Shown here in pieces: positions 3,641 through 42,917 of a stretch of 64,000 nucleotides of DNA; position 1 is the stretch's first letter, and each line of letters starts with the position of its first letter. The stretch is from NCBI GenBank assembly GCA_018524725.1, contig JAEUWP010000472.1, forward strand, positions 1-64,000, read 5' to 3'. The stretch is from Podaxis mareebaensis (taxonomy: Eukaryota > Basidiomycota > Agaricomycetes > Agaricales > Agaricaceae). The position numbers were made by a program, and so were the translations under genes. A model generated the notes under the pieces. That model had not been told where the DNA came from and did no database searches. It saw only the letters and a program-made list of their open reading frames with translations.

Positions 3641-6600
3641 CTACCACGTGCCAAATACATATTGGTTGCGGAGGTTGAAGCGTTGACGGACACCCAATGG
3701 GGGTTCGCACCGTGTTGTTTGCTGAGTCATTATGGGTTGCGAAGGTTGAAGCATTAGTGGATGTCCAATGGGGGTTCGCGTCGCGTCGTTTGCTGAGTTA
3801 TGAATGCGTAGTTGGGGGAATGGATCGGACTGAACAGAGGTGTCGAGAGGGAGATTAGTAGGAGGATGATGGATAGCCGTTTGCACGCGCTGGGTGCCAT
3901 CCGATCCCCACAGCCGCTCTAAGGCTTCTCGAGCTCTTGTATTGAGGCGAGGATCAATGGCAGGGACTCCAAACGGACTCGCGGCTTCATGGTCAGCCTT
4001 TATATCGAAAGTGGTTTCTGATGGGCGCCGTAGGCCGTTGGTGGTAGGGACAAGATTAAACCTATTAAAGATGCTGAGGTCGAAAGACCGGTTCAGCGCC
4101 CAGTCCCAGAATTTGTTCAACCAGTGAATCTGATCACTTGACGCCGCCTGCTGGGACTGAGAGACATACGGTGAAGCACGGAGGTAAACGAAAACTTGAA
4201 CTACGTTGAGTTTGGTTACATTCAACACACTGGGCCCATGGTTGACCAATGCTTTGCGGATGTCTGGTTCGAGTTGCCTGAGTGAGACTGCATCGCGATC
4301 ATAGATAGCAAACAGGTCTTCCTCGATTTCGTTGAGGAGGACATGGGTCTTGCCGAACCCGGTTGATGCAGTGAGAGCCAGTCGAGCTCCGGAAACCGAC
4401 GGAATGAGAGGGAGACCCACGACGTTGCAGAAATTCAGCCTTGACAGAAGGTGGCGGAGGATGGCTTGGGCATCTGTGGCATTGAGGGCTTTCATCTTGT
4501 CGGCGAAAGGCTACAGTGACAGTTAGTTAACGTTGATGACTCAGAGGAATGCCGTCACACCTTCAGCCTTCCGTACGCGATCTCGGGTGATAAGATCTGG
4601 ATTTCACGCGAGAAGGTGAAAGGTTGAGAACGCAGGTACTTGATGGACGCGATGTCCATTTTGGGCGACTGGTCTTGGAAATTCTCTAATACCGTATCCT
4701 GCACGTCACTGGTGGACGGTTGGGGAGAACGATCCAGGTTGAGGTACCGCAACATATCTTGATGTATAACACGAAGATCGAGGTACACAACCGACTTCGG
4801 CGGTGTAAGGGTTTGGACTTGCCCCTGATCAACACCTCGAACGATGACAGTGCTAGCGATGGACGTTCTATGGGTTGATGTTGCACCATCTGAAGACACC
4901 GAGATAATGGGGAAGATGGGGAGTGCACGGAGCCGCGAGCGGAGGAGCTTGTCCGTCGAAATCGACCCATGCCGAGCACAAGCGGAAGGGAGGTTTTTGA
5001 TAAGATAGGCGCACAGATAACTTGCCTCCCTCTCAGAGAATTTTACGCTGATCGTTTTTGGCAGTGCACGCAGGAGGGCATGGATATTGGAGCTCGGCTG
5101 TAACTGCTTCAAGGCCCCTCGGGCTCTCACATTGAGGCGAGGATCAATGACAGGGACAGTCAAGAGCTCCAGCAGGTTCGTAATTTCCTGGTCACCCCAT
5201 GGATCGAAAACGGTTTCTGTAGGGCGTTGGAAGCCTTTGGTGGTAGGGACAAGATTGAATTCATTGAGGAAGCGGAGATCGGGAGACCAGGTCTGCACCC
5301 AGTCCCAGAATTTGTTCAGCCAATGAATTTGATCATCTGTCGCCACCTGCTGGTACCGAGATGCATATGGTGAAGCACTGAGGTAACTAGAGATGTAGGT
5401 TATGTTGAGTTGAGCCACATTTAGCACGCAAGGTCCATGATTGACCAATGCTTCGCGGACATCTGGTTCGAGTTGTCTGAGTGACACTGCGTTGGGATCA
5501 TAGATGGCAAACAGATCTTCCTCGATTTCGTTGAGGAGGACATGGGATTCTGTGAAGAAGGTCGACATGGAGAGGGCTATTCGAGCTCCAGAAACCGACG
5601 GGATTAGAGGGAGGCCCACGATATTACGGCAATTCGACGTTGATAGAAGGTAGCTGAGAATGGCTTGGACGTCTGTGTCATCGAGAGCTTGGATCTTGTT
5701 AACCAGGGGCTAGGGGTGATGATTAGTTCATGTTGGTGACTCGAAAAATCCCGTTCGCACCTTCAGCCTGCTATATGCAGTCTCGGGTGACAACACGTCG
5801 CTGCTCAGGCGTCTGGCTTGTATGACCTGCATGAGATATTGTGGAGGTTGGGTTACCAGAAGGCCAGCACGAGCAAGAGCAGCTAAGGTGCCAGCCTTAG
5901 GGTGTTCATCGGCAATGAGGATAGCAGCGGCAGCCTTATAAGGGGTATTCGTGCCGATCACTGGTGGAGCGGTAAGACTCAGGGCATAATGGGCAACACG
6001 GAAGGATATATCCTTCCAATACGCATAATCTCCAGAATCCACCTCGTCTTGGGGGCTGGGCCATACACCAAGGATGCTCTCGAAGTCATCATGTACAACA
6101 AGAATCTTGAGAAGCACGGCCCATGCCAGGGGAATATAGGTATCGAAAAGTAACCGGTTCCATTCGATCAAAGTCCTGTTTGCAGAGATCAAGGGATGAA
6201 AATTTCCATCCAAATGAGTAACGCACCGGTCATCCGAGTCCTTAGTAGCTTCCACTTCTGTTGTGTTACGCAGATTCTGCCGTGATTGCGTCAGCCCAAA
6301 GAGGGCATTGATATGAACGGGAAACCCTGTTCGCAACGGTAGAGGGAGGTGGGTGAAGAGTCGACCGATCTTTGCTGAAGGCGATGAGTCAAAAGGAACA
6401 GCAAGGTCAATGGTGGGGCTGAGTTTGTGCTGGTGCAGTGTAGCAGTGGGGTTGCTGCCAAGCCACTTGGAAAGCGTCCCCACTGCCCCTGCTTCGGAAA
6501 AGGGAGCATGAAGAATCCGCCATTCCCCCTTTTCCAACGAACGAGCAATAGTAGTTTGGATGGTGGCCTTGTGTATTTCGTACTTTCCATAAGGCTCCGG

Positions 6601-7506
6601 TGGTGTTCTGTTAATTGTCGCACTCGCGATCTGTGTCTTCTTCCCATTAGCACTGATCTCGTAGATATCGATTGAGGAAACGTTGCGCAAGAAGAGTAGG
6701 GAAATATTCAACTCTTCTGCCGCAAAGCTCCTGAGTAAGTTCGAGATGTCATCGGGAGAGGCGACGTTGTTACTGATCTGACTTGCAGAAGTACGTAAAG
6801 GAAGGCGCAAGATGGTGCCATGGAAAGGTTTCCCCCAATCGGAGCGTGAAAAAAACGAGCTAAAAGCAACAAGATGGTCATCGTATTTCCGGGAGTCGTG
6901 CTCGAGGTCCAGCCTGATACCACCCTGGACGCCAGAGACTCCCACGAACTCGTGTTTCGGATCAAGGATGGCAAGGTGAAGCCCGGAAAGTATGTGAGGC
7001 GTGCCAGTTACCTAGGCTGGAGTCAGTGACACCCCACCGTGAGCAAAGAGTGAAACGGACGTGGTAACACGATGAAAGTCCAATCCCGTAATCGCAGGCT
7101 TTCCTGTCTCATGCATAAGTCTTAGTGAAATCAACATGGTTCGGCGGGGATAGTCACGTGGTATCCACAACCTCTGATGGTTGATGGGCGCTCTTCAACT
7201 CCTCCCAGTCGTCCATTCGAGTGGTCACGTCGTTATGGGCCAGAAAGGCTGGTCCCTGGGTCCTAGCGAAATAGGGATGATACAAGTCTTTAGTGCCATG
7301 ATGGCGCCGGTCTAAAACAAAGACCTAGGTTTGGTGTGAGAGCCTGTTTAGAAATGGGGAGATAACTGACAGACCTGTTTGGTGGCGCGAGCATCATCTG
7401 AATTCCGAAGGATGTCATGTAGGAAATTGTTTGAAAATGGGTAGCTTTCCCCAGTTGTGTATGTTGTGGACTTTGGAGAAGCGCTCTGATCGTAGTCTTC
7501 GGTCAT
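3641..7506 (-). CDS. Truncated sacsin-like ATPase protein (copy F)
   Basis: Six exons, open throughout, starting at the ATG 7504-7506. Exon 1 is 44 codons with the N-box ILRNSDDARATKQ. Exon 2 carries the sacsin-type block with GPAFLAHND. A 43-nt exon 3 should hold the G2 glycine loop but reads ACDYGIGLSS instead of IGKYGIGFRS. Exon 4 (about 417 codons, ending near 5761) completes the first ATPase module and its following region (RLPLRTSAS, FPVHINALF). Exon 5 (5709-4561) and exon 6 (4510-3641) both begin with the same linker module containing GLPLIPSVSGAR and LLNEIEEDLFAIYD, so this exon is duplicated in tandem. The last ~90 residues are a new tail encoded partly by a 69-bp repeat. The second ATPase and the BTB domain of the full-length copies are missing. 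It could be an expressed short protein or an unfinished pseudogene; I cannot tell which. Confidence 0.75.
3664..3801 (-). repeat. Two-unit ~69-bp tandem repeat in the tail of F
   Basis: Units at about 3664-3733 and 3734-3801 share blocks such as CCAATGGGGGTTCGC and TTTGCTGAGT. The repeat lies within the open frame and gives two copies of a ~23-residue Pro/Gln-rich segment. Copy E has no equivalent. Confidence 0.8.
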
Positions 7507-7542
7507 GCTGGTTGTGAGAGTGCTAAGGATGATCCATGGATC

Positions 7543-7552
7543 CTTATATAAG
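7543..7552 (-). promoter_or_regulatory. TATA box of copy F
   Basis: The palindromic CTTATATAAG sits 37 nt upstream of the ATG of F. The same sequence is at the same distance in E and a close relative is at B, A and C, so this looks like an inherited core promoter. Confidence 0.65.
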
Positions 7553-7797
7553 GAGTCGTGAACCCGTCCTAAGAATAGTGTGTTCCTTCTGCCACGAGTC
7601 TATGTCATGTGGCATTTAATGTACTTGTTCGAGCGTTAATGTGCTGCGGCGTTGTGTCAAATTAGTCTCGCCAAGTGTTTCTCAATCTCCAACCGCTAAA
7701 GAAGCTTAAAAGAGTTCAAAACGCAGATCTGTTATCACACAAGGACGCAGAACGTAGAGCATATTATTACAAAATCGTAGCACTACTCACCGAAAGC

Positions 7798-7922
7798 CTA
7801 ATTGTGGGCCACGTTTCTACTGTTCTCCCTTGCTTGCTGTACTAGTCGTGCACTGTTCACCTCGTATTCGTCGCAATAAGCCTCCAGTTCCGTAGAGCCA
7901 GTCTTTTTAGCTGTATTTCGAA
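7798..7922 (-). pseudogene. Orphan terminal exon of a sacsin-like/BTB gene (relic 2)
   Basis: This 125-nt minus-strand exon is homologous to the last exon of gene B (same length, same TTTGTAG-type acceptor, GSTELEAYC core, ending VAHN and a stop, TAG here). It is open, but nothing upstream belongs to it: the sequence beyond about 7960 is unrelated. It stands directly upstream of copy F at the spacing that B's last exon has to copy E, so the exon and F were probably copied together. Confidence 0.8.
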
Positions 7923-7929
7923 CTACAAA

Positions 7930-8220
7930 GGGGATATAATGAGCGTCAACAGAAAAGCTGGATTGGTGATACAGTGTACTGGTACAAGTTTAGATGCTTT
8001 CTGATCAATCGGGTCTCCCCATCCTGACCATACAAATTCAAGGAAAAAATAGATTTTATCGCGGTGAAGTATCCCACGATTAATCTATGTAAATATGGCG
8101 TTGAACCGTTAAGCATAAGAGATAAAAATACGTGTCGACTTGGGGAGTATGAATAATGGCTTCGTGCACCAAGTTGAGACACGCGTGACAGTCCATATTA
8201 CATGGGATAAACGTCAGATA
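7930..8220. other. Short unassigned spacer
   Basis: About 290 nt between the relic exon and the transposase-like fragment. I see no gene, repeat or motif that I can name. Confidence 0.4.
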
Positions 8221-10232: not shown

Positions 10233-13200
10233 TCAATTACGAGCCGTGTTTGCACTGTCTTCCCTCACCCGCTGAATTAATTCCGCATTGTTCTCCTCAT
10301 ATGCTTTGCAGTATTCCTCCAATTCCGTCGATTGTGTGTCTTCAGCTGTGCTGCGAACTACAGGTATTGAGCGTTAATGCCAGAGTTAACGGTGGAAGGA
10401 TTTGGAGACGCACCATGATCCAAGTTGAATGGATTAACCATACCCAAGTTTATAATGATCTTCTGCATGACACGTTGCCCGCGAGTCATATCTAAGAAAT
10501 GCATGTATGAAAGCATCTCCAACGCCAGATCGATGTCCGCATCTTGTGTCTGCAACTTGGGCTCCTCCATTGTATACACATAATCTGATTCGAAGTGAAT
10601 CAGTTAGTCGTATGGACGAAGGAAAGAGGGACTCACCAAGAACGCACTCCACACATCGCCGAGAAAATCCTTCGACCTTAATGAGAACAGGATTGGACTG
10701 AGAGGCCTCGCCGCTTTCACGGAAAGATCCGGAAAACATGTCCCTGAAGTAAGTGTTATACGCATATAAAATTGCACGGTACGCGCGGACGGGTTTGCTA
10801 TCAGGCGGAGCGCAGATGAAACTGGCATCTGTAAATATTCCATCTTTCCTCATCTGATTGAGGCTTGTGGAACTGTGGGTCAGATGGTCCTCGCTTGTTA
10901 GCTGGTCGGAATCATCCATCTTTTCACCGGGGTTGATTACAAACGCTCCAGCAGCGATGAGGAGTGAGCGGAAGGATCTGATGAAGTTTCTGGGGGACTG
11001 GAGGAACTTAATGTCATAACCGTCAAGCCAGATATGGTCGGCTCTCTTCCAGTTCCAATCTTCTGGTTTTTTGGGTGCGGCGTCAACGTTGAGGAACAAT
11101 GGGATCTCAGCTTCCTTGCATTGGCGTAGGAATTGTTCCGCATCTTCCGTATGTTCGTTGAGCCATTTATACGTTTGTTCCAGCTGGTCCAGAAGAGTAG
11201 CATGGCACGCGTCATTGTGCACTTGGTCTTCGGCGACCTTAGTAGCCAAGACGATGAGATGGTTGACCTATATTTCCGTCATTACTATTTCAACAATTGT
11301 TACTACCATAAAGGAGATAGGCGTACCACTTCTTCAGCAGCCGGAACGCCCAGATTCGGATATACCATGAGCACGCGCTGGTGGGGCTCGGAGCTGTAGA
11401 AAGAACGCTGAGACCAAGCGATCGCCTTGAATTCCTTGCGGATGAGTTTTCTCGGAGACACAATTTCGGACAAGAAGCGAATGTGGGGAGCGAAGTATCC
11501 AGAAACATCGACTCCTTCGAGGAGTTGAATAGGAGACATATCTCTCGGAATGAATCGCAGGTTATCGAGAGAGTTCCATTGACCTTGAGTGGCAGAGCTG
11601 ACACGGAGAGGTAGAACTTCAGAAAACACGTTGAAGATGACGGCGGCTCGATCAATAAGACCTGGACCAGTCGCGTTCTGAAAAGCCCTCACGCAGTCCT
11701 CGAACATAGAGATATCCAGATCCTTCTGCCTCTTCAAGCCGAATGACTCAAGCCGATCCTCAAGGTGACGGAATGATGGAAGAAGGAAGCGCTCTGAATT
11801 GGTACCGAACGCCGCTAAGAACAGGTCGTCCTGAGATGAATAGAGAGTGTTGGACTCTTTGATCGCTCGTTGCACGTTTGGAACAGGAACCGAAGTGGCT
11901 TTGGCATTAGGCGATAGGAGTATACGAACGAGTCGTTCGTAAGCTGTGTCCAATGGTGCTCCCAAGCGAGTCGGAATTTTGAGGAGGCGTTGAACAGAGG
12001 GAACTGGTTGGATACCCATAGAGGATAACGTAGAACTATACTTCACAATCACCTCGGGCGTGGAAGCGAAAGGAGCAATTGCCTCGTCAATGTACTGCGG
12101 GAGCATGACAGCTTCGTTGGCGGATACGTGCGCACCACCAACGGTCTTCCAAATCGGCAATGAATTGTACTCCTCATGTTCTTCAAAATACTCGTGGTCC
12201 TGCCATGAAAGATGCGCTTGTATCCATGAGATAAAACTTCCGTAATTTTTGGGATCCAATTTTTTGAACATGGTTGATAGGGGTTCAGAGTGGTCAAGCA
12301 GGACAGAAAGAACATTCTCAACCGACAGGGATGTGACGGAGACCTCAGGTAGTACTTGATCTGAGAGGCAGGTGGTATCAACCAGAGTAAAACCCATCTG
12401 CAGGAAGCATTGGGATAGCCACTTGTATTGCGTGAAATCGGCGACGATAGTAGAACGTGTTCCACAATGAGAGATCGAGACATAGTTGCCAGGAGTGACA
12501 GTGGGAAGAAGAGGATAATTCGCAATTGCGGTTGCCGAGACTCTGAGTAACGGAAAAACTTCCCAGAATTTTCCAATCCATTCGCGCAATGCGGGATTTG
12601 CATCCTCCATGACCGGCGACGACGATAGTTTATCATTCAGAAAAGTTGAGATGTCTCCACCCGTCAGCTGCTTCACGTTGAGAGTGCCGATTTTCAGAAG
12701 ATTTTCTGTGTCAAGCCTGGAATCTACAAGGCGGTGGGGTTTGAAGACCTCGATAGATTCTGGTGGAACCACATAGAAGCACGATTCGGAGGAATTCTGA
12801 AACTTTGTGAAAGTGCCGTCTGCCAGGGGGAGGAGTTCCAGGCTCAGCAAACAACTGTGGGCATCCCGATCGCTGGACAAGTAGTCGATAAGGACCTGGA
12901 TTTCGTCGAACTTGAGCATATACGCCGAAAATTGTGACGAGTTGGCGATGATTTGGTCGTGCACATACATCGGAGAAACGCGGGGAATCCGATCACCTGC
13001 GTCACTAAATGAATGGGTGACCGAAGAAGGCAATTCAATGAGGTCGGTAGGCTGTAGGATATTCAAGACTTTGGAAACGGCCTCGGGAAGATCGGCGGCA
13101 ATATGGACGGTTTGGGGAGTGAGAGCATGTGGGTAAAATTTGCTTCTGAAGATATGATTCTCTGACATAGCAGCCATCTCGTAGACTGCATGCGAGACCG

Positions 13201-16200
13201 TACTTGAGATGGTATCATGGGCTTCCTTCGACACACTATTTGAGTTCCCTGGCCAATATATCGCGTTGTCGAAGAGTTGAGGCTGTTGAGCACGATCCTC
13301 CAATAAGTACAGATAAAGTTCAGGCACTACAGCCGTCAGGAGCCGCCGGTTGTATTTCGTCTCATCGTTTTCGTATTCATCCAATCGAACGGATCGCCGG
13401 TCAGGGGCTAAGATGAACGATCCAGAGATATGGACCGGAAGATCGAGTCCGATTGGAAGAGGGAGTGTCGCAAACAATTTGTGCCTGGGAGCGGGGGGCT
13501 GGCATGCAGCAATTCGGACGACAGGAGGAAGCTTGAGTCGATATTTTTCCTGCAGCGAAGGAATGAACGACAGAAGCTCCTGGTCTCTCGCAGAAAGAGA
13601 CAGGATCCGCCATTCTCGGGTACTCTTGGGGGACTTGGGGCAGGTGATTGTTACTGTGTGTGCATCGACATTCTCCTTGATCTTGGCAGGGTCCCCACGG
13701 GATGCTGTAACAGACCAATGCAGCAGAGGTTCGCAGTCCGTTCGGTTAAAAAATCGTATGGACGTTATACGAGTAAATAGAAGGCAGTCAGAGGCGATGT
13801 GTTTGAAGCTGGATATTATGTCGTCTAACGATGTGATCTTCGTGAAGATGGGATCGACATCAAGAACCTGCGCGCTTGACCGGAGAGGGAGCCGAAATAA
13901 CGTCTGAAGCTTGCTCATGAGAACACAGGAAGTGTCAGAATCGAGTCCACGTACTCCGCCATATGAATACTCTTCGTTGACGTCACTGGGCATGTTAAAG
14001 CCGAACAGTCCTTGCAGAGGAGATAAATGATCGCCGTAAAGTCTACATAAGGTGTCAAAAGGCTGGGGGGAAGCGTTTACATTTACCCTCACTTTCTGAC
14101 TCGGGAAAGTGGTAGGCGCAGCGAAGCCCTACCGATTGAAAGATGAGCCTTGCATGGATTCAGGAACAAAACCTGGTCCCCAGAAACGATCATGGCAAAC
14201 TGGAGTAGTGTAGAACTAAACATCTCCGTATGAAAGAAGTTGGGTAAGAACAAACCTCGGTGATGTGGAACATAGTCAGAGCTCCAAGTCCGAATTGCCC
14301 AATGGTATCCTTCCTGCTCGTTTTTCCGCCTACACCTGTCCGCAATATGCCTTTGAAGTCACCATCACTGAAGGTACTGTTGTTGTGAATGACGAGTGCA
14401 TGAACGCGCTGGAACTCAGCACAACGCGAGGAAAATAAGGCCCCGGTTGGCGCTGTTTGCTTGTCGTGGAGGACGTTAAACTCTGTAGCACCAGCGTCCG
14501 CAGCGTTGGCGAAAAACTCGAGGAGCAACTGGGAGTCAGTATATTCCCTCAGGCGATTGCGAATAGTCGTCATGAGATCCTCTCCCATGTCGAATTCGTC
14601 GTCGGTCGGGTTCTGCAAGCTCATGAGTCCCAAACGTCTCAACCCTAGGTTGCCCGCGAGTTCGGGAGAAATGTTCGGGTGTACCAGAGTGTTGGATCCT
14701 ATGTCAACAAGATGCGCACGAGGTCCGACATCGTTATAGCAAACGTTGTCAAATGGGCGAAGAGTACCATTGATATCGGGAATGAAGAGACTTGTACGTT
14801 CTTCTGGAGTTAAGTGGGGAAGCCAGCCCAAGAGACGAATGAGACCTTGAGTAGCACGCCTATTAGTTGGTTCCGTAAGGGTGGATGCGTGAAGCGACTG
14901 TAGATGTGCCAATATGGTTTCTTTCGAAGGCCTGCCAGGGAAGAAATTCGTAATTGACGAGAATCGATCAAGATCATTACACACCGCTTAACGCAGCCCA
15001 TCCGTTGCAAGAACGTGCATACTTGGGAATGGCGACGCGAGTCAAAAACAACCGAGCTGAAGCCGATTTCTGGTACGTCTTCCTCCCCCAGCAGTGCGAA
15101 TTCGACGTTTTTGAGCTTGCCATCACGGGTTGGGATCCACTTTCGACCCTGAAGGACCTTGCGAACGTTAGAAAGCTCCGATTCTGTAAGGCTTCGATGC
15201 CCAAGTTCCTTGACAACTTCGCGGACTTTCTCATACGAGGGCTCGGGAGCCTCCAAAACCTTGATCAACTGCTGAAATACCACCTCAAATGGAACTCTGC
15301 CATCCCAGGAAAATGCTCGACGGAGATAGAAACCGATGTATATATCGGAGGCCACCATTGGCATTACCTCGTCAAATAGCTCCTTTTTTCCAAAGTGAGA
15401 TGATGGATCTCGGCATTTCAGAGGACTTCTGAGACCCTCCGCTGTCGGAATCCATTCGGCTTCCAACGACAGATGTGGGGAGTCAAAGAGGCCACGGCAA
15501 TCAAAGGACGCGTCATTGATATGGTTGATGAGAGTGCGAGCAAGGTGTTCTGGCTGTTGGCAATGACCGCCCGCGATGAAGCGGATACGATCGCGTATGA
15601 TATCCACCGAGAGATCGGTGATGAAGAGGTTGAGACTGCGGAGATGGGCGCTGAGAGTACTGACAGCAGGTCGTGATGTGTCGGGAAGAGAGGGAGATAC
15701 CCGGGAAAACAAGGCTGCAATGCGAGCCTGAGGATCAACGAGGTCCCTAGGCATTCGAAGGGCCCCATCACCAGCGGGTACAAAACTCGTGGCGGCCAAC
15801 CGATTGAGGATACTACGCGAGACGATAGACGAGTTAGAGCTCAGGTGTTTGACATATGCGACTTGCATTTCGAGCGACTGGTGCTTGAAATTCTGTAGCA
15901 TTAGATCGTGCATCTCGTCAATAGAGAGTGGGAAACGGTGCTTCTGATCTATGTATTGTAACATATCCTGGCCGATTGAACGAAGGTCAAGGTAGACAAC
16001 AGAGTCTAAGCGGGGTAGAATTGGGACCTTGAGCGGATCGACACCCCGAACAGTGACGGCACTAGAAATAGACGTCCGTCGGGCGGATGGTGTGTCATTG
16101 GAGAAGGGCGAGAGGATCGGGAAGATGGGAAGTGCACGGAGGCGAGAGCGGAGAGGATAGTTGGCAGAAATTGGCTCATGAACAACACAAGAGGATGGAA

Positions 16201-18728: not shown

Positions 18729-18763
18729 GTTGGTTGCTGTAACATTGAGCGCAATCAAGGATC

Positions 18764-18771
18764 TTTATATA
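18764..18771 (-). promoter_or_regulatory. TATA box of gene A
   Basis: TATATAAA on the minus strand, about 36-43 nt upstream of the ATG of A and equivalent in position to the boxes of B, C, E and F. Confidence 0.6.
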
Positions 18772-19540: not shown

Positions 19541-19644
19541 TGATATTGTCATGTGTTTATCATGATTTCTCCTGGCAATGTCAGTATTGCCAATTGGTCA
19601 ATCAGTTTGCTGTGCATTGTGGGTACCAACACAGCTATGCGCAG

Positions 19645-24100: not shown

Positions 24101-24753
24101 AAGCGGGCTGAAAGCAGCCAGATGGTCACCACAGTCCTGGGAGCTGCACTCGAGGTCCAACCTGACACCACCCCGGACACCAGAGACTCCCACGAACTCG
24201 TGTTTCGGGTCGAGGATGGCAAGGTGAAGTCCGGAAAGTATGTGAGGCGTATCAGTTACCTAGGCTGGAGTTAGTGACCCCACGATGAGTAAAGAACGAA
24301 ACTGACATGGTAACACGAGGAAAGCTCAATCCCGCAATCGCAGGCTTTCCTGTCTCATACATAAGTCTCAATAGGATTGTGATTCAACAGGGGATAATCA
24401 CGAAGTATCCGCAACCTTTGACGGTTGATGGGCGCTCTTCAACGCCTCCCAGTCATCCATTCGAATGAATATGTCATTATGGGTCAGGAAGGCTGGTCCT
24501 TGGGTCCTAGCAAAATAGGGATGATACAAGTCTTTAGTGCCATGATGACGCCGGTCCAAAACAAAGACCTGTGAATTCGGATGTGAGAACCTGTTTGGAA
24601 ATGGGGAGATAGCCGACAGACCTGTTTGGTGGCCCGAGCATCATCTGAATTCTGAAGGATGTCATGTAGGAAATTATTTGAAAATGGATAGCCTCCCAGA
24701 ATTGTGTGTATTGTGGAATTTGGAGAAGCGCTCTGACCAGAGTCTTCGATCAT
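21151..24753 (-). CDS. Truncated sacsin-like ATPase protein (copy E)
   Basis: Six exons, about 1,115 residues, open throughout; ATG 24751-24753, stop 21151-21153. Approximate exons: 132 nt, about 167 nt, 43 nt, 24259-23009, 22957-21809 and 21756-21151. The N-box is ILQNSDDARATKQ. Exon 2 reads GPAFLTHND where full-length copies have GPALLAFND. The short exon 3 reads ACDCGIELSS where A and B have IGKYGIGFRS, so the glycine loop that closes over ATP is lost. Exons 5 and 6 start with the same linker module (GLPLIPSVSGAR in each), a tandem exon duplication shared with F. Exon 5 ends with the ETAYRRLK motif that normally ends the previous exon, which marks the recombination point. ATPase-2 and BTB are missing. 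E and F are close paralogues along their whole length. Likely a catalytically dead short protein or a young pseudogene. Confidence 0.78.
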
Positions 24754-24789
24754 GCTGGTTGCGACGGTGCTAAGGATGGTCCATGGATC

Positions 24790-24799
24790 CTTATATAAG
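24790..24799 (-). promoter_or_regulatory. TATA box of copy E
   Basis: CTTATATAAG, 37 nt upstream of the ATG of E and identical to that of F. It lies within the ~300 nt between the stop of gene B and the start of E. Confidence 0.65.
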
Positions 24800-25061
24800 G
24801 AGTCACGAACCCGTCCCAAGAATAGTGTATTCCTTCGACCACGAGTCCACGTCATGTGGCATTTAATATGCTTGTTCGAGCTGCGGCATGATGTCACCGC
24901 CGCGCTGCTCAATCAATCAAAACCAGTCTTGCCAAATGGTTCTCAATCCTCAAACACTAACGAAGCCTAGAAGCGTTCAAAACGCAGATTTGTTATCATA
25001 CAAGGACACAGAACGCGGAACATATTGTTACAACATAATAGCACAAAATTCACCCAAAGCT

Positions 25062-31000: not shown

Positions 31001-33580
31001 TGCCGAGCACAAGCGGAAGGGAGGTTTTTAATGAGATAGGCACATAAATAACTTGCCTCACTCTCAGTGAATTTCACGCTGATCATCGTTGGCATTGCAC
31101 GCAGAAGGGCATGGATGTTGGAGCTCGGCTGTAACTGCTTCAAGTCCCCACGGGCTCTCGCATTGAGGCGAGGATCGATGACAGGGACAGTCAAACGCTC
31201 CAGCAAACTCGTAATTTCGTGATCACCCTGTGGATCGAAAACGTTTTCCGAAGGGCGTTGAAAGCCTTTGGTGGTAGGGACAAGATTGAATACATCGAGG
31301 AAGCGGAGATCGGAAGACCAGGTCTGCACCCAGTCCCAGAATTTGTTCAGCCAATGAATTTGATCATCTGTCGCCACCCGCTGGGACTGAGAGGTATATG
31401 GTGAAGCGCTGAGATAACTGGATATGCGGGATGTGTCGAGTTTAGCCACGTTTAACACACCAGGTCCATGGTTGACCAATGTCTCGCGGACTTCTGGTTC
31501 GAGTTCCCCAAGTGACACAGCGTCGGGATCATAGCTGGCGAACAGGCTTTCCTCAATTTCATTGAGAAGGACATGGGATTTCCCGGGGAGGAAGAAAGGG
31601 AATTTTCCGAAGGGGATCGACATGGTGAGGGCCATTCGAGCTCTAGAAACCGAAGGGATTAGAGGAAGACCTGCGATGTTACGGCAGTTCGACGTTGATA
31701 GAAGGTAGCTGAGAATGGCGCGGACACCTGGGGCATCGAGAGCTTTGATCCTATCAGTCAAAGCCTAAAATAACAATTAGTTAATGGTGATGTCTCGAAC
31801 AAGGCCGTCCAAACCTTCAGTGCGCTATAAGCGACCTCAGGTGACAACATTTTGTTGTTGAGCAGGTTCCCATCTCGCATGACCTGTGTGAGATATTGTG
31901 GAGGCCGGATTACTAGGAGGCCTGCGCGAACAAGAGCGGCCAAGGTATCATGTTTGGGTGATTCATCAGCGACGAGAAGAGACGTAGTGGTTGCATATTC
32001 AGGAGGATTCGTGCCGAAGACCGGCCAAACAGCATGATCCAGGGCAGAGCGAGCAACTTGGAGAGGCATATCCTTCCAATACGCGTAATCTCCCGAATAC
32101 ACTTTCGCCTGAGGACGGGGCCATGCATCGAAGATGTTCTCAATACCATCACGTAGAACAAGGGCCTTGAGAAGCGCGGCCCATGCTAGGGGAATATAGG
32201 TATCGAAAAGTAGCCGATTCCACTCGATTAAAGTACTGCGCGACAAAGTTAGGGAGCAATAATCTTCACAACAAACGGGCAACACACTGATCATCTGAAT
32301 TCTGGACAATTCCGATTTCTCCTCCGTTGCGTAGGTTCTGCCTCGAGTGTGTCAACGAAAAGAGGGCATTGATGTGAACAGGGAACTCTGTTCGCAATGG
32401 GAGAGGGAGATAGGTGAAGAGTCGACCGATCTTCGTTGAATGTGAGAACTCGAGGGGGATGGCAAGGTCGATGATTGGACTAAGTTTGTGCCTGGAAAGA
32501 GTGGCAGCGGGGTCTCCACCGAGCCGCTGGGAGAGCTTTTTCATTGCCTCCTCTTCGGAAATGGGAACATGAACGATCCGCCATTTCCTCTCTTCCGACG
32601 AGCCAGCAAGTGAAGTTTGGATAGTAACCTTGCATGTCTTGTATCCAAGCTCTCCTTCTGGCACCAGCGGCGCTCTATCAACCGCTGCCTTTGCGATCTC
32701 TGTCTTCTTGCCGTCCGCGCTGATCTCGTAGATTTCGATTGAGGCAACATTGCGCAAGAAGAGTAAGGAGACATTCAGCTCTTCTGCCGCAAAGTCCCTA
32801 AGCAATTTCGAGATCTCGCTGGGCGAGATAATTTTATCGCTGATCTCACTCGCGGAAGTACGCAAAGGGAGGCGAAAGATGGTTCCATTGAAAGGATTCC
32901 CCCATTCGGAACGTGGGAGGAAGGAATCAAAGGCAGTGAGATGATCACTGTATGTCTGATAATCGTTTTCAAGGTTTAACTTGACACCACCAATTCTAAC
33001 GCCAGAAACTTCGGCGAATTCGTGTTTCGGGTCAAGGATAGCAAGGTGAGGTCCGGAGAGTATATGAGGCGTATCAGTCACCTGAGGTCCCGTTAGCAGC
33101 ATATTGTCAGGAATAAAGAAAAAAGCGGACATGATAACATGATCGAAATCCAATTCCATATTTGCCGATTTTCCTGCCTCGCATATAAGTACCAGTAGAA
33201 TCAATATAGTTGAACAGAAGATAATTACGAAGTATCTGTGACCTTTGATGATTGATGGATACTTTTCAATGCTTCCCAGTCATTCTCTTGAATCAACGCA
33301 TCGTTAAAAGCCAGAAGGGCGGGTCCTTGGGTGTTAGCAAGATAGGGATGATACAAGTCTTTCGTGCCATGATGACGCCAATCCAAAATAAAGACCTTGG
33401 TTTGGGGGATTGAGAACATGGGTACCGGTAGCAAGACAGGCGACAGACCTGTTTGAGGGCCAGAGCGTCATCTGAGTTCTGAAGAATTTCACGTAGTAGG
33501 CCAATGGAGAATGGGTAGCTTCCCAGAATTGCGCGTATTGCAGCGGTTGGGGCAACGCTCTCACCAAAGCCTTCAGTCAT
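25062..33580 (-). CDS. Full-length sacsin-like double ATPase with C-terminal BTB domain (gene B)
   Basis: About 13 exons and about 2,600 residues, colinear with A and C; all junctions examined keep frame. ATG 33578-33580, stop 25062-25064. ATPase-1 has N-box LQNSDDALALKQ (unusual: Leu replaces both the Gly and the Thr of DDAGAT), GPALLAFND, and an intact G2 loop IGKYGIGFRSCYH in a 43-nt exon. The linker exon 31770-29800 carries GLPLIPSVSRAR. ATPase-2 (about 29764-29085) is canonical: FLANAADAGATEF, LVIHNNSTFSDDDF, IGQFGLGALTMFHITE. The third long exon (about 28710-26190) ends in the HQRVLMVYPSLGVP motif. The BTB follows (MRKDGICTDVNFIC, HAHRAYLAAYNAHFKKMF, FSRRCVEQVLG), then a helical tail and the 125-nt last exon ending MAHN. 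The exon 1-2 intron has an AAG acceptor. It sits 300 nt upstream of E on the same strand. Confidence 0.88.
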
Positions 33581-33614
33581 GTTGGTTGCTGTAGTCTGGG
33601 TGCGATCGATAGAC

Positions 33615-33624
33615 CTTATATAAG
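33615..33624 (-). promoter_or_regulatory. TATA box of gene B
   Basis: CTTATATAAG about 35 nt upstream of the ATG of B, the same decamer as in E and F. Confidence 0.65.
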
Positions 33625-34427: not shown

Positions 34428-37400
34428 TCAGTTATGAACGACACTTCCCTCTCTCGCTTGCAGAACCAGCTCCATGTTGTTTATCTCGTACGTATTGCAG
34501 TAATTCAATAAAACCCTCGATTCCGTGAGACGGGCCGTAGCACATACTAAGACCAGGCATTAAGCATAAGCACCAACGAACCGACATTGCAGACATACCA
34601 TCATCGAGGTTGAAAGGATCAACCATCTTGAGCTTGATGATAATATTCTCCACTGCGCGCTGTGCATCCACCATTGACCAACGATGCGCGAGTGTAAGCA
34701 TCTCCAGCGCTAACTCGATATCCGAATCTTCTCTCTCCAACTTGGGCGCCTTTCCCGTGTACGCGTAATCTGCCCTTGAATGAGATTAAGGGATACATGA
34801 GGAAACGTTTGACATACCAAGAATACATCCAACACAACGTCTCGAGAATCCAGGAACTTCAATGACAATGGGTTCTTTGTCAGAGGCCTTACCAGCCTCA
34901 CGGAAACCCTCGGAGAACATTACCCGGAAGTAACTGCTATACGCGGCCAGATACGCACGATGCGCGCGCAAGGAATCGTTATTTGGGAAGTCGCAGACGA
35001 AGCTAACATCGGTGCATATCTCGGTTTTCCTCATTTCATCAAATGTAACGCAAAGGCCGTTGGACAGACGATCATCGCTTGCCGGTTGTTGCTCTGGAAC
35101 TTCGATTCCCACCTCGTGTTCGTATTTGATGGTGACCGCTCCTGCAGCGATAAGAAGTCGACGGAAGGACTTGATAAAGTCTCGCGGGCACTGGAGGTAT
35201 CCCGTGTCATAGTTATCGAGCAAGATGTGGTCAGCACGTTTCCAATTCCAGTCCGTCGCATTATCGGGGGGTACATCGTCATTGAGGAACAATGCCATCC
35301 CGCTACATCGGGACAAGTAATATTTCGACTCCTCCGAATGGTTGTCGAGCCATTCGTACGTTTGCTGGAGGTGGTCCAGCAGCGGCACACGACATGAAGT
35401 AACATTCGCTTGTTCACGGGCCACTTTGGTTACTAGGACGACGAGATGATCGACCTGCACTTAATTGTTATTGCTGATACTGCTATCATATTTACGACGA
35501 ACATACCACTTCCTCAGCAGCCGGAACGCTCAGATTCGGATACGTCATCAGCACTCTTTGGTGAGGCTGCGTGGCATAGAATGCGCGTTGAGACCATACA
35601 ATCGCTTGGAACTCTTCCCGTACAAGATGGTTCGGTGACACGATATCTGGTAGCGATCGAATGTGAGGAGCGATATATCTTGTATCGTCGGTGGTTCCTA
35701 GGGGACGAGGGGACGTATTACGGGGGATGAAGTTCAAGGTACCCAGATATCTCCACTGAGCCTCCTGATTAGAACCTGCAGCACGTAACGGGAGTTCTTC
35801 GCAGAAGATTTGGAAGATAGCAGCAGCTCTCTCCCTACGATCATCGGTTTCGGGGGCATCTTGGAAAGCTTCCACGCAAGTTCTGAACATGTCCATATTG
35901 AGACTATGTTGTCTCTTCAAACCAAATCGCTCGAGTTGGCTCTCGAGGCGCCGGAACGATGGGAGAAGGAAACGGTCTGAGTTATCTCCAAACGATGCCA
36001 CAAATAAGGTGTCGCGAGAAGAATAGAGCGTCGTGGATTCTTGTATGAATCGTTGTGAGTTCGGGACAGGAATCCCGGCGCCATTGGAAGTGAATGAAAA
36101 AAGTACGCGAACAAGGCTGTAGTAAGCGTCGTCCAGGCCCTCTCCCAAACGCATCGGAATGCTAAGAAGGGATCGAAGATTGGAAGGAGGTTGGATGCCC
36201 ATGTTCACAAGCAACAAATCATAGCCTACAACAGTCATGGACGTAAACGAGGCAATCGAGTCCGAGGCAACATTGCGCGGAAGCATCTGAAGGTCGTTCG
36301 CAGAAACGAATGAGTCATTTCCTGACCTCCAGATCGGCAATGATCGATACTGCCAATGCCTCTGAAAGTAGGCCTTCTTCCGGTTGGCAAAATCGGTACG
36401 AATCCAAGAAATCAAACGGACGCGCGTCGCTGAGTCCAGGCGATCGAATAATGTCGATACCCCTGCAGGATGATTAAGGATCTTGGAAAGTACGCTCTCA
36501 ACCGTCAGCTGTGAGGACCTAAGGGCGTTTCGTAGCTCCTTTGACAACGCTCCTATGTTGACCAGGGTAAACCCCATGCGGACCAGGCACTGAGGCAACC
36601 AGTCTCGGTCAACGAAGTCGGCAAGGATGATGGAAGGTGTATTACAATAATCAAGGGACAGATAGCGGCCGTTCTGAAGCGTCGGTACAAGTGGGTAAGC
36701 TGAAATGGCTTTTGTAGAAATGTTGAGGGATGGGAAGATTCTCCAAAAATTCGCGATCCATCCTTGGGTAATGGGGTCCACATACTCCAGAGTTTGAGAT
36801 GCAGGTATGTGATCGTCCAAGAGCATCCCGATATTGGTGCTCGTGATCTTGCTCACATTGAGCCTGTCACTCAGACCAAGGAGCCTTTCGGCTGCCAAGC
36901 CATGGTGTACAAGGCGATGGGGGGTGAAGACGTTGGCCGCTTCAGGAGCGACATAAAAACAGGAATTGGAAAACATATCGAACTTAACAAAACTCCCATT
37001 TTCGAGAGGCAACAACGGTAGGCCGATTAGACAGCTGACCGCATCTGAATCTTTGGACAAAAAGTTGATTAAACCTTGGATCTCTCCGAAGTCAAGAATA
37101 GACACCGAAAAGCGCGCAAGATTGTCCAGGATCTGCCCATGAACATATTTCGGTGTCACAAGAGTAACAAGGCTCTCGCCCGCATTCCGCAGTCGTCGAG
37201 TGACCGAGGAGGGGAGCTTGACTGCATCCAAGGGTTTGATTGCCTCTAGTACTTTGGAAACGGCACGGGGAAGACGGGTCATGAAGTGGGCGGCTCGGGA
37301 GGAGAGGACATGCGGATTGAATTTGCTTCTGAGGATAGGATAATGCGAGGTAGTTGCCTCTCGGTAGACTGCGTCGATTACCAGCGTTGAGATAACATCA

Positions 37401-40400
37401 TATGTGTCATCTTTGACGACTTTCGCATTTCCTGGCCAGTAGACTGCATTATCCGAGACCAAAGCACGATCCGCCAACAAGGAAAGATAAAGCCTCGGGA
37501 GGATGGTTGTCAGCAGCCAGCGATTATAGGACGCCTCCAAGTTTTCATATTCGTCAAGGCGGACTGACCTCCTGTCAGAGGCCAAGATGAACGATCCAGA
37601 TATATGGACAGGGAGGGCGAGAGGGATTGGAAGCGGAAGTGTTGAAAAGAGGTTGTGAATAGGGTCGGGTGACGGACATGCAGCGATTCGAAGAACGGGA
37701 GGCAGCCTGAGTCGGTATTGTTCCTGAAGTGAAGAGATGAACGGCGGAAGCTGCTGTTCATTCACAGAAAGAGACAATACACGCCATGCCTGACACCCCC
37801 TCAGCGAGTCGGGGCTAGTGATCGTAACCGTCTGTCCACTGATGTCCCCCTCAATCCAAGAAAAGTCCCCGCGGGATGCGGCAACAGACCACAGAAGTCG
37901 GGGTTCGTGATATTTGCGTTCGAAGAGTCGGATAGAGGTTAGGGAGGTGAAGAGAAGACAACTTGCCGCAACGCCTTCGAACTCTGAAACCAGATTGCAA
38001 AGATTGACAGCCTTTCTGAAGATGGGCTCGACGCTTTGGAACTGCTTGCTCGATCGAAGAGGAAGGCGGAATATTGTCTAGGAGATTTTAGTGAGAGCGT
38101 GGTGAGTGTTAGAAACGATATCCACATACGCCGTTATAGGTATAGCCCTCGTCAACATCCTCAGGAGGGTCGAAGCCAAACAATCCTATCAACGGGAATA
38201 GATGGTCACCGTATAGCCTATACATAGAAGTGTTAGAAAATTAACAAAGGGCCCAATTTTTTTCTCACCTTCGTACAGTAGAAAGGGGAAGACGCAGCGC
38301 AGCTCTATCAACCGCAAGGTGGTACTTGCAGGGATTCAGGAATAAGACCTGATCACGAGAGACAATCATAGCAAACTGAGACAGACCAAGTTAGAGGTAC
38401 TAGCGTTGGGAACCAGATGAAACAAACCTCTGTGATGTGGAACATCGTAAGAGCACCAAGCCCGAACTGCCCGATAGTATCTTTCCTGCCCGACTTTCCG
38501 CCTTTCCCAGTTCGCAGAATTCCTCTAAAGTCATTATCAGTGAATACACTGTTATTATGCATGACAAGCGCAGGAACACGCTGAAATTCAGCACAGCGTG
38601 GAGACAATAAAGTCCGCATGGGCGCCGTCTGTTGGTCGAGCAAGACGTTGAATTCTGCTGCCCTGGCGTCTGAGGCATTCGCGAGGAACTCAAGAAGCAT
38701 TTGAGAATCGGTGTACTCTCGAAGGCGATTGCGGATGGTGGTCATAAGGTCCTCCCCCATATCAAGATCCTCATCAGATTGACTCTGCAAGCTCATAAGC
38801 CCCAGACGTCTCAATCCAAGGTCATTGGCAAGCCCAGGAGAAATGTCTGGGTGTACCAAGCTGTTTACTCCTATGTCAATGAGGCTCGCACGGGGTCCAA
38901 CGTCATTGTAGCAAAGATAGGCAAATGGCCGAAGTGCGCCATTGACGTCGGGTATGAAGAGGAGGTTGCGTTCCTCTGGTGCTAGTTGAGGAAGCCATGT
39001 CAACAGTTGAATAAGACCTTGAGTAACACGTCGATTCATCGTATCCGTGAAGCGCGAGGTGTAAAGCGTGCGTAAATGGTCCAGAATGGTCTCTTTTGAT
39101 GGCCTGTCCAGCATCAGTCCGAACAACTTGCAAGACCTACTAGAGATGATCACGTACCGCTCAACACAACCCATTTCACGAAGGAAGGCGTGGACCTCGA
39201 AATGGCGACGCGCGTCAAAAACAACTGAATGGAAGCCAACTTGAGGTATGTCTTCATCCCCAAGTAGAGCAAACGTAACGGACTCAAGAGTACTATGGCG
39301 AGTTGGTACCCATTTCCGGGACTTGAGGGCCTCGCGAAGAGACGATAACTGTGATTCCGCAAGATCTCGGTGCCCCAATTCCTTGACGACTTCATGGACT
39401 TTCTCATACGACGGCTGAAACCCGTCGAGAATCTTGATCAATTGCTGAGATAATACCTCGAAAGTAACTTCATCATCCCAAGAGAAAGCCTTCCGCAAAG
39501 AGAGACCGATTTGTACATCGGGGTTGACCATTGGCATAATTTCGTCAAAAAGCTCCCTTTTGCCGGAATGGGACAATGAATCTCGGCATTTCAGAGGGCT
39601 TCTAAGGCCCTCTGATGTCGGGATCCATTCGAGTTCCAAAGAGAGGAGTGCGGGATCAAAGAGGTCACTGCAGTCAAAACGTGTATCATTGATGAGGTTG
39701 ATTAGAAGCGTAGCAAGCTCCTCTGGTTGTGCGCAATGACCACCAGCGATAAATTGGACGCGATCGCGCACTATGTTGATGGAGAGCTCAGTGATGAAGA
39801 GTCTGAGGGTGCGGAGATGTGAAGCAAGAGCCTCACGAATCGGGAGTGCGATATCGGGGAGGAAGGGAGACTGTCCTGGAAATAACGCTGCGATCGAAGC
39901 TCGAGGGTCAACAAGATCTTTGGGCGCTTGAAGAGTCCCATCGCGGGCAGGTACAAAGCTGGTGGTGTTCAACCGGTCGAGATTTCCGCGTGAAATGACG
40001 GCGGAGTTGCAACTCAAGTATTTGACGAATGCGACCTGCATTTCTAGCGATTGAATCTTAAGGTTCTGCAGCATCAGATCTTGCATTTCTTCAACAGTTA
40101 ATGGAGAGCGGTGCACTGGATCGAGGTACATCAACACGTCCTGGCTGATTGCACGAAGATCGAGATAAGTAATGGTGTCCAAACGAGGAAGAACTGGGAG
40201 CTTAAGTGGATTGGCCCCTCGAACAGCAACAGCGCCTGGGATCGAAGCTCGGCGAGTGGATGATGTACTATCAGAGGTCGGCGAGAAGATCGGGAAGATA
40301 GGAAGCGCGCGAAGGCGAGAACGGAGAACATTGTCTTTCGAGACTTCGCCATGACGAGCACAAGAGGACGGGAGGTATTTGAGGAGATAAGCGCATAGGT

Positions 40401-42917
40401 AGGCGGCCTGGGACTCTGAAAACTCTACGGAGATCGCCGATGGTAGAAAACGGAGGAGAGAATGGATGTTGGAGCTCCGTTGCAATTGTTTCAGAGGTTC
40501 TAAAGCTTTTGCATTGAAGCGAGGATCGATGACAGGCACGCCCAATAACTCCAACAGACCCGTGACCGCCTTTTCGTTCTGAGGGTCAAAAACGGTCTCC
40601 GTTGGACGCCGCAAGCCGCGGGTGGTGGGAACGAGATGAAATTGGTTGGTGAATTTCAAGAACCACTTCTGGGCCCAGTCCCAGAATTGGTTCAACCATC
40701 GAATCTGGTCATTTGTCACTGCCTCCTGGGATGTTGAAATGTACACTGAGGCTTTGAGGTACATGATAACTCGGTTAGGATCAAGTTTTGTCAGGTTCAG
40801 AACCCTGGGGCCTTCGCTCATAAGCAACGTGCGGATATCGGAGGCGAGGCGCTTGAGTGACACAGCTTGGGTATCATAAGCGGCGAAGAGTCCCTCCTCG
40901 GTTTCGTTGAGTAGAGCGTGAGGTCTGCTGGAGGCAGTTCGCGCTGGGACTGCCATCCGACCTCCAGCAACGGATGGGATCAGAGGAAGGCCGACAATGT
41001 AGTGACAATTGGAAGTTGACAAGAGGTAGCCGAGAACTGTTTGGGCTTCTTCGTCGTCGAGGGCCCTTATCTCGTCAATGAAATACTAAGCAACTGGCGT
41101 CAATCAATGGAGCGAGAAAGAGCGAAAATCGCCTATACCTGCAATTTCCTGTGTGCAATCTCAGGCGACAAGATCTCGATCTTTTTCGTGAAATTCGCGA
41201 GGATGATTTGGGTGAGGTATTGCGGGGGTTGTGCTACCAGGAGACCAGCATGAACGAGGGCGGATAAGACATTCTTTTCAACAGAGCCTTCCGCGATGAG
41301 GAGTGATGCAGCAGTATGATAGGAGGGGGGCTTTGTGCCGAAGACGGGCCAAACCTGAAGATTGAGAGCATGCTTGGTGACGTGGAGAGGAAGGTCTTTC
41401 CAGTATACGTAATCTCCGGAATACACTTCCGCTTGGGGACTTGGCCAAGCATTGAAGATGTTCTCTACTTGATCGTGCTTCACGAGGACTTCAAGAAGAG
41501 CCGCCCATGCCTGCGGTATATACGTGTCAAAGAGGAGGCGATTCCACTCAATTAATGCACTAAAACATAACCTTAGTAAGCAAAGTACCTCTCCGCAAAT
41601 AGATGACATACTGATCGTCAGACTTCTTGACGACTCCGACTTCACCTGCATTTCGGAGATTTTGCCTCGATTGAGTCAACGCAAAAAGAGCGTTGATGTG
41701 GACAGGGAATTCCGTCCTCAATGGGAGAGGGAGGTATGTGAAGAGCCGACCAACATCCACGGAGTTCGAAGAATTCAAGGGAATGGCGAGATCGATGACA
41801 GGACTAAGTTTGTGTTGAGACAGTGTTGTGGTCGGATTTCCGCCCAGTCGGAGAGAGAGGGCATGGATTGCCTTTGCTTCGGAAAAGGGAGCATGAATGA
41901 TTCGCCATTCTCTCTCCTCCGACGAACCAGCAAGATGAGTTCGGATAGTAACCTTCTGTATCTCATATTGCCCATGAGCCTGTGATGGCGTGCGATCAAC
42001 AGTTGCAGTTGCAATCTGCGTTCTCTCGCCATCGGCACTAATCTCGTACATCTCAATCGAAGAGACATTGCGCAAGAAGAGGAGGGAAATATTCAACTCC
42101 TCCTTCGCAAAGTCCTTGAGTAGATCCGAGATTTCGTCGGGAGAGACAATTTTATGGCTGATTTCACTCGCAGATGTACGTAGGGGCAGCCGAAAAGCGG
42201 AGCCACTGAAAGGTTCTCCCCACGCAGATTGTGGAAGGAATGAATTGAACGCTGCGAGATGGTCGCTATATTTTCGCCATTCTTCTTCAATATTCAACTT
42301 CACGCCGCCAATCTTGACACCAGAAAACTCAGCAAAATCGTGCTTGGGATCCAAAATCGCAAGATGAGAACCAGAAAGGATATGTGGTGTATCCGTAATC
42401 TGGAAACAGATTAAATAACCTGCACGCGAGCGGTTTAATGATGTAGAAACTGTGACGTACGTGGTAACAAGAACGAAAGCCGACTCCGTACTTGCCAATC
42501 TTCCTGTACCGAGTTTAAGAGTTGAATAGGTGTGCGACAGGAGGACACTCACGATGTATCTGTGGTCTTGGATGACCGATGGATATTTTGCAACGCTTTC
42601 CAGTCATTGTCTCGTATCAACTCGTTGTTGAAAGCCAAAAGGGCTGGACCTTGAGTTGTGGCAAGATACGGATGATAAATGGCACTTTCGCCGTGAGAGC
42701 GTCGATCAAGCACAAAGACCTAAAAGCCAGAGAAAGGAAATCTGAGCGCTTATGATACTGATACCGAGGAAATACAACAACAAACCTGTTTCGTGGCTCG
42801 AGCATCGTCAGTATTCTGGAGGATTTCACGCAAAAGACCAATGGAAAAGGGATAGCTTCCCAAGATCGCACGGATGGCGGCAGTCGGGGCAACGTTTTCA
42901 CCAAATCCTTCTGCCAT
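34428..42917 (-). CDS. Full-length sacsin-like double ATPase with C-terminal BTB domain (gene C)
   Basis: Thirteen exons could be placed: 42917-42786, 42719-42553, 42503-42461, 42399-41612, 41559-41139, 41085-39158, 39103-38428, 38375-38269, 38217-38130, 38077-35507, 35454-34818, 34769-34599 and 34546-34428, giving about 2,615 residues with no frame break. ATPase-1: N-box LQNTDDARATKQ (residues ~32-44), GPALLAFNN (~68), G2 loop IGKYGVGFRSCYH (~101), RLPLRTSAS, FPVHINALF. Linker 1 spans about 518-1290 (GLPLIPSVAGGR, VHAFLREMGCVE). ATPase-2: LLEFLANASDARAAEF (~1295), IGQFGLGALTMF (~1376), with Arg/Ala where A and B keep DAGAT. Linker 2 runs to about 2307. BTB about 2445-2550 (TDVSFVCDFP, RAHRAYLAAYSSYFRVMF), then a BACK-like helical tail (LALEMLTLAHRWSMVDAQRA). 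It is the most divergent of the three full copies and the first in the array. Confidence 0.9.

What the first reader, a model, noticed from the sequence alone, without database searches (positions are those of the whole stretch)
3641..42917. Tandem array of sacsin-like double-ATPase/BTB genes
Five head-to-tail genes (C, B, E, A, F in transcription order) plus two orphan last exons occupy about 40 kb. The three complete ones encode two GHKL/HSP90-type modules, two long sacsin-like linkers and a BTB domain in one ~2,600-residue chain. Animal sacsin ends instead in J and HEPN domains. A sacsin core fused to BTB and amplified in a local array is unusual and suggests a fast-evolving family, perhaps in proteostasis, non-self recognition or stress. 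Architecture and copy number are read directly; the role is inference.
Basis: partly seen in the sequence, partly recalled or inferred. Interest (0 to 1): 0.88.

Follow-up and report, generated by a model that had tools for sequence, protein, structure and literature searches.

The report
Tandem fungal sacsin-BTB gene array
A mushroom-family fungus carries a row of giant genes that join two Hsp90-like (sacsin) engines to a BTB domain of the kind that can dock onto ubiquitin ligases; the gene type is widespread in mushrooms, I found no study of it in the papers I could search, and it may mark chosen proteins for destruction.

Summary
The array is real. Three full-length genes (C, B, A; 2,615-2,626 aa, 13 matching exons each) and two truncated genes (E, F) lie head to tail, with two orphan last exons. 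The fusion is not peculiar to this genome: 95 of the 120 listed homologs (335 found) carry SACS plus BTB, and linked copies recur. Full copies are under purifying selection (dN/dS 0.13-0.22) and keep the ATP-site residues. The short forms share lost ATP-site residues, yet their frames are open. A-B and B-E look gene-converted. Most likely this is an ATP-driven chaperone-like machine that hands clients to CUL3, which the genome encodes. The modules also match bacterial antiphage TmtA models, so an immune role is a serious rival. CUL3 binding, ATPase activity and function are untested.

The parts
34428..42917 (-). Gene C, full length, 2,615 aa, 13 exons: SACS module 1 (aa 12-240), second GHKL module (weak HATPase_c_3 match at aa 1294-1394), BTB (aa 2445-2565)
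   Evidence: model; Pfam; groups with Macrolepiota copy 3 in the tree
25062..33580 (-). Gene B, full length, 2,626 aa, 13 exons, same architecture
   Evidence: model; genome HMM hits to SACS and BTB
10233..18728 (-). Gene A, full length, 2,618 aa, 13 exons, sister of B
   Evidence: model; HMM hits; tree
21151..24753 (-). Gene E, short form, 1,098 aa, 7 exons: module 1 with degenerate ATP site, one full and one partial exon-6-derived unit; no module 2, no BTB
3641..7506 (-). Gene F, short form, 1,186 aa, 7 exons, same plan as E
59620..64000 (+). Gene G, first part of a sixth, divergent SACS-SACS-BTB gene (runs to about 68761 of contig C269; approximate model of 2,833 aa; 30-32% identical to B in its two long matched stretches)
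   Evidence: SACS hits at 59647-60504 and 64340-64672; BTB at 68167-68316
7801..7923 (-). Orphan last exon, 80% identical in protein to the last exon of B
182..313 (-). Second orphan last exon, 64% identical in protein to that of B
21155..25232 (-). Duplicated block (B last exon plus E), copy 1
   Evidence: 87.5% identical over 4,085 columns to 3909-7970
3909..7970 (-). Duplicated block, copy 2 (orphan last exon plus F)
21809..22957 (-). E, full 383-aa exon-6-derived unit
   Evidence: alignment of units
21151..21756 (-). E, terminal partial unit
4561..5709 (-). F, full 383-aa exon-6-derived unit
3641..4510 (-). F, terminal partial unit with an unrelated tail
42960..42967 (-). TATA box of C (50 bp before ATG)
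33615..33622 (-). TATA box of B (42 bp before ATG)
24790..24797 (-). TATA box of E (44 bp before ATG)
18764..18771 (-). TATA box of A (43 bp before ATG)
7543..7550 (-). TATA box of F (44 bp before ATG)

Best explanation
Each full-length gene encodes a two-engine, sacsin-type, Hsp90-like ATPase that ends in a BTB domain. Most likely the ATPase modules and the long linkers after them bind and remodel particular client proteins, the BTB dimerises the chain and recruits CUL3, and the client is ubiquitylated: a chaperone-type substrate adaptor of a CUL3 ubiquitin ligase. Tandem duplication, gene conversion and divergence of the linkers then diversify the set of clients. The short forms, with a damaged ATP site and no BTB, would act as regulators or decoys of the full-length proteins. 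Shown by computation: architecture, conserved ATP-site residues, BTB fold, a CUL3 gene in the genome, purifying selection, duplication, and signs of conversion. Inferred: ATP hydrolysis, CUL3 binding, client handling and the role of the short forms.
Against: No binding, ATPase or expression data. Phi-x-E is absent, shifted or gapped in 21 of 65 rows, Agaricus and several other Agaricaceae included. The 3-box was not tested (the BTB model ends before it). The top sequence match of the C-terminus is a ZBTB17-NAC1 chain (1.6e-7), and ZBTB8A and BACH proteins also score; NAC1, PLZF and BCL6 are among the fold matches. Only one fold match of the BTB model has E below 0.001 (7e-4). 25 of the 120 listed relatives have no precomputed BTB, some of them partial models. 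A low dN/dS of full copies does not tell a recognition role from a housekeeping one.
Confidence: 0.48

Rival explanations
1. Intracellular immunity or non-self recognition: the proteins are the fungal branch of the family that in bacteria includes the antiphage protein TmtA. They sense viral, transposon or non-self proteins and trigger degradation or cell death; the array is a birth-and-death recognition repertoire.
For: PADLOC TmtA models match P0001 at 1.8e-71 and the N-terminal half of B at 4.3e-50. Signs of gene conversion between A-B and B-E. TATA promoters in six of six array-type genes but not in G. One relative in a Candolleomyces cluster (P0096) carries GTPase domains including AIG1. 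In animals sacsin domains are fused to DEATH and TRADD-N domains (PMC3710099 and PMC8195603, passages read).
Against: Two animal sacsins match TmtA better still (8.9e-239 and 5.3e-161), so the match is a property of the wider sacsin family, not evidence of immunity as such. The best stretch in P0001 and in the half of B that I scanned covers only the N-terminal part of TmtA. No 150-codon window of the five pairs examined has dN above dS.
Confidence: 0.25
2. Chaperone or scaffold without ubiquitin ligase activity: the BTB only dimerises the chain, and the protein organises large assemblies, as proposed for animal sacsin.
For: BTB domains often only dimerise (recalled); phi-x-E missing, shifted or gapped in 21 of 65 rows; the top sequence match is a ZBTB17-NAC1 chain.
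Against: 44 of 65 rows keep phi-x-E, including A, B, C and G; the two top fold matches are KLHL26 and KEAP1.
Confidence: 0.2
3. The short forms E, F and the C15 copy are decaying pseudogenes with no role.
For: They share the change of the catalytic Glu to Asp and the loss of the first glycine of the glycine-rich loop; E also lost another glycine. dN/dS 0.37-0.43 is weaker constraint than in the full copies. The 7 database neighbours of E all keep an intact loop, so the degenerate form is seen only in this genome so far.
Against: All three frames stay open; neutral simulation predicted 10-18 stops each, and 0 of 1,000 runs per gene stayed open (the exon models were built to be open, though at splice sites shared with B). 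TATA box and splice sites are kept. The C241 fragment, by contrast, is broken.
Confidence: 0.25

Closest known systems
Animal sacsin (SACS)
   Same: SACS Hsp90-like modules with the same ATP-site residues and middle-domain arginine by my alignment; very long linkers; giant chain
   Different: Two modules, not three; no HEPN or J hit in the four fungal full-length proteins scanned; a C-terminal BTB instead, which none of the 91 animal or unnamed sacsin-like rows has.
Fungal SACS-BTB proteins annotated 'BTB domain-containing' or 'Sacsin' (Macrolepiota P0001-P0003, P0121; Coprinopsis CC1G_02725 = P0049)
   Same: Same length and domain order; 335 homologs found with B, 95 of the 120 listed with both domains
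   Different: Nothing basic; the window adds a local array with short ATP-site-degenerate forms and exon-unit repeats.
Bacterial antiphage TmtA (system name Tiamat recalled)
   Same: N-terminal part matches the PADLOC TmtA models
   Different: Best stretches do not reach TmtA's C-terminal half; BTB present; TmtA is a single-gene bacterial system (recalled).
BTB substrate adaptors of CUL3 (KLHL, KEAP1, SPOP)
   Same: BTB sequence and fold, phi-x-E in many members, CUL3 encoded in the genome
   Different: The client-binding part would be sacsin-like ATPase modules instead of kelch repeats or MATH.

Membership tests
Sacsin family (SACS Hsp90-like) | SACS (Hsp90 NTD-like) domain | tested here: met
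Sacsin family (SACS Hsp90-like) | ATP-site Glu, Asn, Asp, Gly loop and middle-domain Arg | tested here: met
   62-66 of 66 rows in both modules; Glu and first Gly not kept in short forms E, F, H
Animal-type sacsin architecture | C-terminal J and HEPN domains | tested here: not met
   No J or HEPN hit in C, P0001, P0010 or P0049
Animal-type sacsin architecture | Three Hsp90-like modules | tested here: not met
   Two SACS stretches in C, P0001, P0010 and P0049
CUL3 BTB substrate adaptor | BTB fold of the KLHL/SPOP kind | tested here: met
   only part of the BTB was modelled, and ZBTB, NAC1 and BACH proteins match at similar levels
CUL3 BTB substrate adaptor | Phi-x-E CUL3-contact motif (recalled) | tested here: inconclusive
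   44 of 65 rows, incl. A, B, C, G
CUL3 BTB substrate adaptor | 3-box C-terminal to the BTB | not tested
   A C-terminal extension follows the BTB, but no 3-box profile or model was run
CUL3 BTB substrate adaptor | Physical CUL3 binding | not testable with these tools
   CUL3-like gene present
TmtA (bacterial antiphage) | TmtA N-terminal ATPase part | tested here: met
   animal sacsins meet it too
TmtA (bacterial antiphage) | Full-length TmtA match | tested here: not met
   Best stretch in P0001 (full protein) reaches profile position 617 of 1370 or 396 of 1655; bacterial P0231 matches 10-1355 of 1370. Of B only the first 1,284 aa were scanned.

The most novel reading that the evidence does not exclude
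Mushroom-forming fungi use a sacsin/TmtA-type ATPase fused to a CUL3-type BTB as a diversifying intracellular immune system: full-length members recognise foreign or non-self proteins and have them ubiquitylated, while ATP-dead, BTB-less short forms with variable numbers of an in-frame exon unit act as decoys or regulators. The repertoire is renewed by tandem duplication and gene conversion.
Probability: 0.18. Interest if true: 0.88.

Novelty: new variant of a known kind. Interest (0 to 1): 0.6.

Why it matters
Animal sacsin is known for ataxia (ARSACS), and whether and how its Hsp90-like modules use ATP is debated (PMC9880540, passages read). Here evolution has joined the same modules to a BTB domain that may couple them directly to ubiquitin ligation, in mushrooms that include laboratory models and in natural series of duplicates, ATP-site-degenerate forms among them. 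That makes two questions testable: what the sacsin modules bind, and whether the ATP cycle matters. The shared family with the bacterial antiphage TmtA also ties a human disease protein to a prokaryotic defence protein.

Tried and rejected
Rejected: separate ATPase and BTB genes (95 of 120 listed homologs from independent annotations have both domains in one chain; no RNA-seq was available). Rejected: assembly duplication (A, B and C differ by dS of 0.9-2.2; in the tree C groups with one Macrolepiota copy, and A plus B with another). Rejected: positive selection on the full-length copies as a whole (no 150-codon window of A-B or B-C with dN above dS; A-C windows and single sites were not tested). 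A CArG element was considered for the sequence around the TATA boxes; the exact pattern was not found upstream of any of the seven genes. F-H looked uneven at fourfold sites too (0 of 2,000 shuffles), but their unit numbers differ and the tails align badly, so I do not count it as conversion. The tests (nine comparisons) were not corrected for their number.

Led nowhere: paper searches for sacsin+BTB+fungi (0), DUF3684 (0) and sacsin+hsp90-like+CUL3 (0). Sacsin+basidiomycete and sacsin+mushroom gave 2 papers each, sacsin+fungal 21 (20 listed), sacsin+biological conflict 2 (titles and abstract beginnings seen). By these none is about this family; one lists 'Sacsin [Psilocybe cubensis]' as best hit of an up-regulated Tulasnella gene (PMC11503967, passage read). 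PMC3629688 (passages) has no mention of fungi. Only the CC-licensed PMC library was searched. Gene G's model probably still contains two unspliced introns (near its module-1 glycine loop and in its BTB; my reading), so its length is uncertain. Between the first and this version of the report I lowered the main odds from 0.50 to 0.48 and raised the scaffold rival from 0.18 to 0.20, because the top BTB sequence match is a ZBTB17-NAC1 chain, and raised the pseudogene rival from 0.20 to 0.25.
Full report
What is there. The window is contig C269:1-64000 of an unnamed 37-Mb genome. The nearest relatives are Macrolepiota, Leucocoprinus, Leucoagaricus and Agaricus proteins, so I infer an Agaricaceae mushroom. 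On the minus strand, in transcription order, lie C, B, E, A and F. C, B and A have 13 exons each; the order and sizes of their exons match, including a 43-nt exon 3 that carries the glycine-rich ATP loop. Several introns were set by comparing the paralogs, so the models are homology-supported, not transcript-supported. Pfam finds SACS (two stretches) and BTB in C and one SACS in E; genome-wide scans find the same domains at the matching places in A, B and G. All SACS matches over the family's cut-off lie on C269 or C15; that scan scores only the best candidates and did not list the C241 fragment.

Beyond the finding. A sixth gene, G, runs from 59620 to about 68761 on the + strand, 30-32% identical to B in its two long matched stretches. 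C15 holds an intact short form, here H, with two full units and one partial unit; C241 holds a broken fragment close to B (83.6% at DNA level over 2,573 columns).

Short forms. E, F and H keep module 1 and its middle region, then carry an exon-6-derived unit of about 383 aa, once in E and F and twice in H, followed by a partial copy. First units and last units match their counterparts in other genes better than each other (E_u1-F_u1 78%, E_u2-F_u2 81%, E_u1-E_u2 68%), so the repeat is older than the split of the three. All three changed the catalytic Glu to Asp and the first glycine of the loop to Cys. Their frames are open although neutral change at their dS would have given 10-18 stops (0 of 1,000 simulated runs open for each gene; the models were built to be open); dN/dS is 0.37-0.43. 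I read this as relaxed but real constraint on an ATP-dead derivative. The 7 homologs found with E all keep an intact loop.

Family. The search with B gave 335 proteins; of the 120 listed, 95 carry both SACS and BTB by precomputed Pfam and 25 lack the BTB, some of them partial models. Hosts range from Agaricales to Tulasnella, Serendipita, Auricularia and Exidia, with one ascomycete, Stipitochalara. The tree (62 of the 231 database proteins then held, plus A, B, C and G; FastTree on 2,408 columns, rooted by me on Stipitochalara) places C with Macrolepiota copy 3, A and B as sisters next to Macrolepiota copy 1, and G with Macrolepiota copy 4 and Leucoagaricus copy 3. Species-specific pairs occur in Laetiporus, Athelia, Amanita, Ephemerocybe, Candolleomyces, Mycena and Serendipita.

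Selection and conversion. Full copies: dN/dS 0.216 (A-B), 0.138 (A-C), 0.130 (B-C); dN is among the lowest over the module cores and highest around codons 450-600 and 1950-2100. At fourfold sites A-B identity is uneven (window range reached in 0 of 2,000 shuffles; maximum in 0.0025 of them), as is B-E (0 of 2,000; 0.0045). Controls: B-C 0.68, A-C 0.25, E-F 0.40, E-H 0.16, E-A 0.13 for the range; A-B over the first 900 codons alone 0.03. This fits gene conversion between some neighbours. F-H is also uneven (0 of 2,000), but their units differ in number, so misalignment may explain it.

Mechanism. ATP-site residues are nearly invariant in both modules. A model of P0227, a 1,167-aa relative from Athelia, matches sacsin SR1 best and, over about 400 residues, Hsp90 NTD plus middle domain and other GHKL ATPases (SMCHD1, MORC, MutL, GyrB). 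The BTB matches KLHL, SPOP and KEAP1 but also ZBTB, NAC1 and BACH proteins, a ZBTB17-NAC1 chain being the top sequence match. Phi-x-E (recalled) is present in 44 of 65 rows. A CUL3-like gene lies on C301. The papers I read in passages say that BTB plus 3-box forms the CUL3 interface (PMC10564622, PMC5664961); I did not test a 3-box. I therefore favour a chaperone-type CUL3 adaptor at 0.48, with immune recognition at 0.25.

Link to bacterial defence. PADLOC's TmtA models match P0001 and the N-terminal half of B strongly; two animal sacsins match even better. Sacsin modules and TmtA therefore share a family. The system name Tiamat is recalled; the paper was not available.

Regulation. Six of six array-type genes (A, B, C, E, F, H) have TATAWAWR 42-54 bp before the ATG (0.011 expected per 60 bp); G has none within 160 bp. 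I infer that the array genes are inducible; no expression data were seen.

Novelty. The architecture sits in databases under names such as 'BTB domain-containing protein' or 'Sacsin'; I found no paper on it with the searches named under Tried and rejected. I rate it a new variant of a known kind.

Noticed in passing
C269:69152-70075 (outside the window, L040): A DnaJ-like ORF (J-domain motif read by eye) follows gene G on the same strand by about 0.5 kb; animal sacsin carries its own J domain.
   Followed up: no
window 1082-1894 and 9151-9942: TPR-repeat ORFs (the second a weak match) inside duplicated flanking DNA; similar DNA also lies beside the C15 copy.
   Followed up: partly
upstream of A, B, C, E, F and C15:9344: TATA box at -42 to -54 in six of six array-type genes, none at G.
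   Followed up: yes
C241:13134-15359: Broken fragment of a B-like gene, a decayed copy.
   Followed up: partly
window 19784-20164 (-) and C15:5196-6023: ORFs that by eye resemble a BED zinc finger and a transposase; possible mobile elements near the copies.
   Followed up: no
   Followed up: no
P0087, P0095, P0100 (Dichomitus, Lentinus, Epithele): Same SACS-BTB chain with an ATP synthase OSCP domain (PF00213): a neighbouring gene fused by annotation, or a real fusion.
   Followed up: no
own genome C10, C387, C47, C1: Several similar cullin-like genes or fragments besides the CUL3-like one on C301.
   Followed up: no
window 46239-46808 (+) and 52177-53025 (-): Sugar transporter and FtsJ methyltransferase exons between the array and gene G.
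   Followed up: no
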